Source: Candidatus Altimarinota bacterium | GTDB taxonomy: Bacteria > Patescibacteriota > Gracilibacteria > BD1-5 > UBA6164 | DNA: 60,994 nt | Direction of reading: 5' to 3' | Assembly: GCA_030683605.1 (NCBI GenBank) | Contig: JAUXPL010000038.1 | Coordinates: forward strand, 1-60,994 | Shown here: positions 29,978 through 33,123 of the stretch, in pieces | Layout of the letters: every line of letters starts with the position of its first letter | How positions within the stretch are numbered: position 1 is the first letter of the stretch | Program-made: the position numbers and the translations under genes | The notes under the pieces: model-generated | The model's input: the letters and a program-made list of their open reading frames with translations, nothing else | Database searches by the model: none | Told to the model about the DNA's origin: nothing

Positions 29978-30054
29978 GGATGCGTAGCTCAGTTGGTTAG
30001 AGCGCTCCCCTGTCACGGGAGAGGCCGCGGGTTCGAGTCCCGTCGCGTCCGCCA
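29978..30054 (+). tRNA. tRNA-Asp (GTC)
   Basis: Acceptor GGATGCG pairs with CGCGTCC, discriminator G, encoded CCA. Anticodon loop ctGTCac between CTCCC and GGGAG. T-arm gggttcgagtccc. Its 3' end from cgagtccc to cca is copied at 30193-30213 by the element downstream. Confidence 0.95.
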
Positions 30055-30109
30055 TTTAAAAAATAAGAAAAATAAATATTTTTTTATTGAGTAATATATT
30101 GATTTATAT

Positions 30110-30213
30110 GACTCGAAAGGAGGTTTTTGCGAAGCAAAATTTAATTGCGACGAATAGGAGCAATTAAAACGGATGGCCTACCCGCAGGGAGCCGAGTCCC
30201 GTCGCGTCCGCCA
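30110..30213 (+). repeat. 104-nt structured element ending in a copy of the tRNA-Asp 3' end (copy 1)
   Basis: The element starts GACTCGAA, the inverse of the T-loop of the tRNA just upstream, and ends in the last 21 bases of that tRNA including CCA. It lies exactly 55 bases after the tRNA, as copy 2 does after tRNA-Leu. It folds into a closing stem GACTCG/CGAGTC and three hairpins: TTTTGC/GCAAAA, TTTAATTGC/GCAATTAAA, and a GGC/GCC stem with an inner CCC/GGG. Copy 2 (33020-33123) differs at paired sites in compensating ways. Possibly a structured RNA or a small element that targets tRNA genes. Confidence 0.8.
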
Positions 30214-32879: not shown

Positions 32880-32964
32880 GCCCAGATGGTGGAATTGGTA
32901 GACACGCGGGACTTAAAATCCCGTTTCCTCGGAAGTGCGGGTTCGATTCCCGCTCTGGGCACCA
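32880..32964 (+). tRNA. tRNA-Leu (TAA)
   Basis: Acceptor GCCCAGA pairs with TCTGGGC, A discriminator, encoded CCA, long variable arm (tttcctcggaag). Anticodon loop acTTAaaa within GCGGG and CCCG. T-arm gggttcgattccc. Its last 21 bases are repeated at 33103-33123. Confidence 0.95.
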
Positions 32965-33019
32965 TACTAAAAAAGTATTAAAAATAAATAAATGCACCTA
33001 ACGATGCTTATAATAATAG

Positions 33020-33123
33020 GAATCGAAAGGAGGGTTCTGCAAAGCAGAATTTAATTGCGACGAATAGGAGCAATTAAAACGGATGGCCTACCCGCAGGGA
33101 GCCGATTCCCGCTCTGGGCACCA
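33020..33123 (+). repeat. 104-nt structured element ending in a copy of the tRNA-Leu 3' end (copy 2)
   Basis: Same size, core and 55-base distance from its tRNA as copy 1 at 30110. The first eight bases GAATCGAA are the inverse of this tRNA's T-loop (ttcgattc); in copy 1 they are GACTCGAA, inverse of ttcgagtc. The first hairpin is TTCTGC/GCAGAA here and TTTTGC/GCAAAA in copy 1. The closing stem is GAATCG/CGATTC. The second hairpin and the right core are identical between copies. It carries AAAGGAGG, a perfect Shine-Dalgarno-like word rare in this window. Confidence 0.8.

What the first reader, a model, noticed from the sequence alone, without database searches (positions are those of the whole stretch)
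29978..30213. Element that copies the 3' end of the tRNA it follows and mirrors its T-loop
After tRNA-Asp and after tRNA-Leu there is exactly 55 bases, then a 104-base element. Each ends in the last 21 bases of its own tRNA with CCA. Each begins with eight bases that are the inverse of that tRNA's T-loop: GACTCGAA for ttcgagtc, GAATCGAA for ttcgattc. The tRNA-specific base therefore changes at both ends together. The distance from one copy of the tRNA end to the next is 159 bases in both. A plain integrase attachment site explains the direct repeat but not the matched inverse at the other end.
Basis: partly seen in the sequence, partly recalled or inferred. Interest (0 to 1): 0.88.

Follow-up and report, generated by a model that had tools for sequence, protein, structure and literature searches.

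The report
tRNA-tracking RtT-like RNA elements
Behind many tRNA genes in this uncultured bacterium and its relatives sits a small folded-RNA element that carries a copy of that tRNA's 3' end and a short strand complementary to that tRNA's T-loop; it is built like E. coli's long-unexplained RtT RNA and looks like a tiny mobile element that base-pairs with the tRNA it sits behind.

Summary
The two window copies belong to a family of structured RNA elements. I found about 85 copies: 23 of 48 genomes of the same family, a second Patescibacteria family, and one contig filed as Omnitrophota. Nearly all lie 6-69 nt behind a tRNA gene on the same strand, after some 20 different tRNAs. In every usable copy (75) the 5' strand is complementary to T54-C56 of its own tRNA, and usually on to nt 61/62. 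It follows an aberrant T-loop (TGC gives GCA). The 3' end copies nt 56/57-CCA. All four helices covary. Where the duplication is freshest, the inserted piece is only guide plus core, and both tRNA nt 57-76 and the trailer are duplicated. Cores cluster by genus, not by tRNA, so they spread and are re-targeted. The layout is that of RtT RNA (RF00391) of E. coli tyrTV and other tRNA operons. The Rfam model does not score these copies, but weak RtT hits in other Patescibacteria are also tRNA-linked with tracking guides. Best reading: a divergent RtT-like mobile RNA whose guide spans its insertion point in the T-loop, as an intron guide does. Enzyme and RNA step are unproven.

The parts
29978..30054 (+). 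tRNA-Asp(GTC); T54-C62 = 30032-30040, nt 57-76 = 30035-30054 (first copy of the repeat)
   Evidence: ARAGORN and Rfam tRNA
30055..30109 (+). spacer/trailer; in fresh copies elsewhere this is a duplicate of the native tRNA trailer, here it no longer matches the trailer of the empty allele
30110..30117 (+). guide GACTCGAA, complementary to T54-C61 of tRNA-Asp; the part facing G57-C61 also pairs with the tail copy (P1)
   Evidence: P1 covariation
30118..30123 (+). conserved AGGAGG joint after the guide
   Evidence: alignment A3
30125..30139 (+). hairpin H1 (TTTTGC GAA GCAAAA)
   Evidence: covariation
30140..30168 (+). hairpin H2 with loop GA-C-GAATA-G-GA (30149-30159)
   Evidence: covariation in 8 of 10 pairs
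30169..30175 (+). conserved ACGGATG joint
   Evidence: alignment A3
30176..30192 (+). hairpin H3 (GCCTACCCGCAGGGAGC); 3' end of the inserted core
   Evidence: covariation
30193..30213 (+). tail: copy of tRNA-Asp nt 56-76 with CCA; followed by the native trailer (30214 onward) seen directly after the empty tRNA-Asp of a congener
32880..32964 (+). tRNA-Leu(TAA); nt 57-76 = 32945-32964
32965..33018 (+). spacer/trailer with TATAAT about 5 nt before the guide (promoter only possible)
33019..33027 (+). guide GGAATCGAA, complementary to T54-C62 of tRNA-Leu
33028..33102 (+). core (H1, H2, H3), 93% identical to the Asp copy over query 1-92; H1 differs by paired changes
33103..33123 (+). tail: copy of tRNA-Leu nt 56-76 with CCA

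Best explanation
Each copy is an RtT-like structured-RNA element: a 9-nt guide plus a core of about 75 nt (H1, H2, H3), lying between two copies of the tRNA's nt 57-76. The guide is complementary to nt 54-62 of that tRNA, across the junction C56|R57 where tRNA sequence resumes after the core. It therefore pairs with 3 nt on the left and about 6 nt on the right of the insertion point, as a group I intron guide does (P1 + P10). After insertion the same guide strand closes the element by pairing with the tail copy (P1). Shown here: structure and covariation, guide tracking, tail copy, trailer duplication in the freshest copies, patchy occupancy, spread across tRNAs within genera. Inferred: the element RNA finds the tRNA transcript or gene through its guide; its 3' end is joined to R57; synthesis and repair past the trailer leave tRNA-trailer-[guide-core]-tail-trailer, so the tRNA stays intact; guide and tail are refitted to each new host tRNA by selection on P1 and target pairing. 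The element probably also persists as an RNA cut from the tRNA transcript, as RtT does.
For: Covariation: 98.8% of cells paired, 17 of 26 pairs changed on both sides, collapsing when slid by one column. Guide-tRNA: all 75 copies complementary at nt 54-56, including TGC/GCA at tRNA-Arg(CCG), where the tail has no nt 54-55 to pair with. tRNA-Val of G446: the 59-nt trailer is almost identical (58 of 59) on both sides of guide-core and the match ends at the guide; L061 shows the same; a congener has the empty site and two others a 28-nt mini insert at the same place. Window Asp: four congeners carry an empty tRNA-Asp, and the trailer of the nearest matches the sequence after the tail. Core tree: 15 genus changes against 33.9 shuffled, tRNA 40 against 45.5. 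Same anatomy with tandem copies in E. coli tyrTV and proK.
Against: No enzyme is linked: reverse transcriptase occurs in 11 of 23 element-bearing and 11 of 25 element-free genomes. In most copies only the tail, or tail plus up to about 25 nt, is still identical, with sharp ends; gene conversion between the repeats is needed to keep the duplication model. The window Asp spacer does not match the empty-allele trailer, although the tail is 21/21. Acceptor parts of tails decay (39/518, against 6/444 in the T-arm part), so exchange of tails into working tRNAs cannot be obligatory. Empty sites could be precise losses rather than pre-insertion states. No RNA data.
Confidence: 0.5

Rival explanations
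1. Resident regulatory RNA. The element is a host-kept small RNA cut from tRNA transcripts, as proposed for RtT (stringent response); the guide is kept because the RNA binds or monitors that tRNA's T-arm, and the repeats are old duplications.
For: Strong structural conservation; guides stay complementary to the tRNA even where tail acceptor parts have decayed; RtT RNA is released from tRNA operons and linked to the stringent response in the literature (PMC4986893).
Against: Patchy distribution, 0-10 per genome; cores cluster by genus, not by tRNA; fresh duplications of tail plus trailer. Mobility and function can coexist.
Confidence: 0.25
2. DNA attachment sites or MITE-like inserts of a tyrosine recombinase that targets the T-loop; the tail is the att core and the element's core an arm.
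For: Direct repeat of the tRNA 3' end from the T-loop to CCA is classical for tRNA-integrating elements (general knowledge; repeat seen).
Against: No gene between the repeats; the 5' strand is remade for each tRNA; RNA-type covariation in all helices; the duplication runs through locus-specific trailers in fresh copies.
Confidence: 0.08
3. Replication or repair template switching and tandem duplication at tRNA genes: the inverted (guide) and direct (tail, trailer) copies are by-products, with no guide function.
For: Inverted plus direct copies at a junction are typical of template switching (general knowledge); some loci hold tandem copies (L173; tyrTV).
Against: The same covarying core recurs at some 20 tRNAs in several lineages; chance switching would not supply it. 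The guide follows the tRNA at single bases while other helices change by compensation.
Confidence: 0.12

Closest known systems
RtT RNA (Rfam RF00391; rtT/rttR repeats of E. coli tyrTV; also proK, argQ/Z, lys cluster)
   Same: Lies behind tRNA genes; 5' strand complementary to the tRNA T-arm; hairpin CCCGAAGGGCG; ends in a copy of the tRNA 3' end with CCA; trailer repeated (with its terminator at proK); tandem G-A in the outer stem in some copies (a tandem GA motif is noted for RtT in PMC7657543).
   Different: Window copies do not score with RF00391 nor do representative relatives; R1 does not score enteric copies. Core hairpins differ; window guides pair with G57A58 by Watson-Crick pairs instead of tandem G-A. 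About 20 tRNA species and other phyla.
Group I intron internal guide sequence (P1/P10)
   Same: One short strand near the 5' end pairs with both sides of the junction.
   Different: Core of about 75 nt with no group I elements; no Rfam match; no G-U at the junction; the tRNA is left intact by duplication.
Integrase attachment sites in tRNA T-loops
   Same: Direct repeat from the T-loop to CCA, tRNA restored.
   Different: No integrase and no cargo; guide strand follows the tRNA; folded RNA core.

Membership tests
RtT RNA (RF00391) | located just downstream of a tRNA gene, same strand | tested here: met
   78 of 87 hit rows
RtT RNA (RF00391) | ends in a copy of the tRNA 3' end through CCA that pairs with the element's 5' strand | tested here: met
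   E. coli comparison
RtT RNA (RF00391) | scores above the Rfam gathering threshold (45 bits) | tested here: not met
   no RF00391 match in the window, representative relatives or G000; sub-threshold tRNA-linked hits up to 33 bits in same-class genomes
RtT RNA (RF00391) | tandem G-A in the outer stem | tested here: inconclusive
   possible in some relatives (L062, L147, L153), Watson-Crick TC/GA in the window copies
RtT RNA (RF00391) | RNA released during tRNA processing | not testable with these tools
   no RNA data
group I intron | conserved P3-P9 catalytic core | tested here: not met
   no Rfam match; the core is only about 75 nt
tRNA-targeting integrative element | integrase gene between the direct repeats | tested here: not met
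   repeats are 159 bp apart in the window; no room for a gene
retroelement with resident reverse transcriptase | reverse transcriptase co-occurs with the element | tested here: not met
   PF00078 in 11 of 23 element-bearing and 11 of 25 element-free genomes

The most novel reading that the evidence does not exclude
RtT-like elements are the smallest known RNA-guided mobile introns or retroelements: an RNA of about 83 nt that recognises a tRNA T-loop through a 9-nt guide, reacts at C56|R57, and is copied behind the tRNA gene with duplication of tail and trailer, spreading across bacterial phyla.
Probability: 0.25. Interest if true: 0.95.

Novelty: new variant of a known kind. Interest (0 to 1): 0.74.

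Why it matters
RtT repeats have stood unexplained behind E. coli tRNA genes for decades. These relatives show that the 5' strand is a guide that follows the host tRNA base by base, that the insert is only guide plus core, and that the class reaches far beyond enterobacteria. This turns an odd repeat into a testable system, with a defined target (nt 54-62), a defined joint (C56|R57) and a model organism (E. coli K-12). It may be an RNA-guided mobile element of under 100 nt.

Tried and rejected
Rfam at gathering and relaxed thresholds on copies of this family: no family besides tRNA fits the element. Viral contigs: the single GAATA-word hit (L035) is not in an element-like context; of 32 TATTT-word hits none has a stem above 4 bp. 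Genes shared around the tRNA-free copies: none conspicuous. Reverse transcriptase link: none. Spacer carried along with the core between tRNAs: no (same-genome different-tRNA spacers no more alike than others). Whole-transcript capture ending at the terminator: the guide starts several to about 26 nt after the T-run in the copies examined, not at it. Sense-strand test by G-U versus A-C: 6 versus 4, too few. An ungapped tail comparison suggested that guides prefer the tRNA to the tail, but several cases were alignment artefacts, so I do not use it. Literature searches found no account of guide tracking; the library lacks most subscription papers.

Full report
Observation. The window carries tRNA-Asp(GTC) at 29978-30054 and tRNA-Leu(TAA) at 32880-32964. 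Each is followed by 55 nt and a 104-nt element. The core word AATTGCGACGAATAGGAGC occurs only in these two places in the window (0 expected). The same genome has further copies behind Ser(GCT), Gln(TTG) and Trp(CCA).

The family. A search with the element DNA found copies in 11 of 59 relatives (a few of these are only the tRNA tail). A covariance model (R1) built from 16 copies found them in 23 of the 48 genomes of the taxonomic family, 0-10 per genome. Of 87 hit rows, 78 have a tRNA within 250 nt upstream on the same strand; several of the others are truncated contigs or degenerate tRNAs. About 20 tRNA species are used. The spacer between CCA and guide is 6-69 nt, mostly about 50-65 nt. A second Patescibacteria family has versions with the H2 pentaloop TATTT instead of GAATA, behind Pro, Tyr, Leu(TAG) and Leu(GAG). 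One contig filed as Omnitrophota has a copy behind a truncated tRNA-Trp.

Structure. On the curated alignment A3, 98.8% of cells are paired, 17 of 26 pairs show changes on both sides, and the covariation score falls from 0.482 to at most 0.130 when the partner is slid by one to three columns. P1 is guide with tail copy; H1, H2 and H3 follow. H2 ends in GA-C-NNNNN-G-GA. Where a guide departs from Watson-Crick pairing with the T-loop, it does so mainly opposite nt 57-58 (TC to GA, GT, GC or AA), which in the GA cases can form tandem G-A as in H2, and beyond nt 61.

Guide tracking. In 75 copies the guide is complementary to nt 54-56 in all 75; Watson-Crick pairs with the tRNA run at 68-74 of 75 at each of nt 57-61 and 60 of 75 at nt 62, and fall off at nt 63. 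Against shuffled tRNAs the variable positions pair at 4.40 of 5 instead of 2.92, 0 of 10,000 shuffles. The same anticodon with different T-loops has different guides: Trp, Val, Ser(GCT), Tyr, Leu(TAG), Leu(CAA). One tRNA-Arg(CCG) has an aberrant T-loop TGC and its guide has GCA; the tail has no nt 54-55, so this base can follow only the tRNA itself. It is one case.

What is inserted. In G446 tRNA-Val, the 59-nt trailer stands on both sides of guide-core with 58 of 59 bases identical and the match stops at the guide. The tRNA-Tyr copy of G268 ends its match at the guide in the same way. A congener has the empty site with one trailer, and two others carry a 28-nt mini insert at the same place. 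So the insert is guide plus core, and the flanking repeat is tRNA nt 57-76 plus trailer. In most other copies only the tail, or tail plus up to about 25 nt, remains identical, with sharp ends; I read this as conversion between repeats, but it is not proven. Tails keep the T-arm part (6/444 differences) while the acceptor part decays (39/518), so P1 is what is conserved, not a usable tRNA end. At the window's Asp locus four congeners have an empty tRNA-Asp; in the nearest, the trailer matches the sequence after the window's tail, but the window spacer does not match it. That spacer's origin is open, and the empties could be precise losses.

Spread. On a tree of cores without guide and tail, genus changes 15 times against 33.9 shuffled, tRNA 40 against 45.5. 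The window's Asp and Leu cores are sisters. Cores therefore spread, or are homogenised, within genera while guide and tail are refitted to each tRNA. Spacers do not travel with cores.

Known relative. E. coli tyrT and tyrV are followed by RtT repeats (rttR). Read with this anatomy, they show a guide GGGGAAGGATGAGAA complementary to the tRNA-Tyr T-arm with G-A opposite G57A58, a core with CCCGAAGGGCG, a tail AATCCTTCCCCCACCACCA and a repeated trailer of about 59 nt. K-12 proK has the same with a GAGGATGAGAA guide for tRNA-Pro, and arg and lys genes carry short forms. Salmonella and Klebsiella Pro and Providencia Lys agree. RF00391 does not score the window or representative copies of this family and R1 does not score enteric copies. 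But RF00391 gives weak hits in two other genomes of the same class, and the four with a following tail copy are behind Tyr, Arg and Ser tRNAs with tracking guides. A further weak hit, in another Patescibacteria family, is behind tRNA-Arg(GCG) with a tail copy. The literature held here reports RtT released from tyrT and other tRNA operons, Pasteurellaceae members and a stringent-response link (PMC4986893), a tandem G-A motif (PMC7657543) and rtT-like sequence in BIMEs (PMC2965389). I found no report of guide tracking or target duplication, but the library is partial.

Mechanism. The guide spans the joint C56|R57 with 3 nt on one side and about 6 on the other, and the copy of tRNA sequence after the core begins at that joint. 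This is the geometry of an intron guide (P1 + P10, from general knowledge of group I introns). Joining of the core's 3' end to R57, followed by copying and repair past the trailer, yields the observed order and leaves the tRNA intact. These steps are inferred. No enzyme is linked; reverse transcriptase shows no association. A resident function of the RNA is not excluded.

Noticed in passing
L019, L037, L043, L046 (= L011): tRNA-free copies: the guide pairs with its own upstream TCGATTAC-type hairpin (TCAATTAC/GTAATTGA in L043, a paired change) and the core is followed by a conserved 3' part of about 80 nt (AAATTTCAGC...CCCTAAGACCCC); no shared neighbour genes seen.
   Followed up: partly
L198, L199, L196 (tRNA-Val): 28-nt mini insert (GGATGAGAAGTTTATGCCCCTTGTGGGT + tail) at the place of full elements, with duplicated tail and, in L198, a duplicated trailer; decayed in L196.
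   Followed up: partly
L008, L127, L131, L140, L149, L157, L184: Tails of several Leu and His copies carry a similar change around acceptor nt 69-70 (CTCTAGCACC, CTCTCGCACC), as if selected to stop the tail pairing with the tRNA 5' end, or spread by conversion.
   Followed up: no
L165 (tRNA-Arg CCG): tRNA with T-loop TGC instead of TTC (nt 55 G), matched by the guide.
   Followed up: partly
L227, L228 (E. coli K-12 argQ/argZ, lysT/W/Y/Z): Short RtT-like inserts (GGATAACGTTGC...GGCCCGAAGGGCGA...ATCC tail) without the GAGAA part of the guide.
   Followed up: partly
L049:1-7572 (contig filed as Omnitrophota): Downstream of the tRNA-Trp copy a second hairpin GCGACGAATAGGAGC stands without guide or tail; the bin may be mixed.
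   Followed up: no
L141, element behind tRNA-Ile (hit 1112-1242): Copy with about 34 nt inserted in the H2 loop and a guide (GGATTTGAA) that fits another T-loop (TTCAAATCC), possibly a jump caught before the guide adapted.
   Followed up: no
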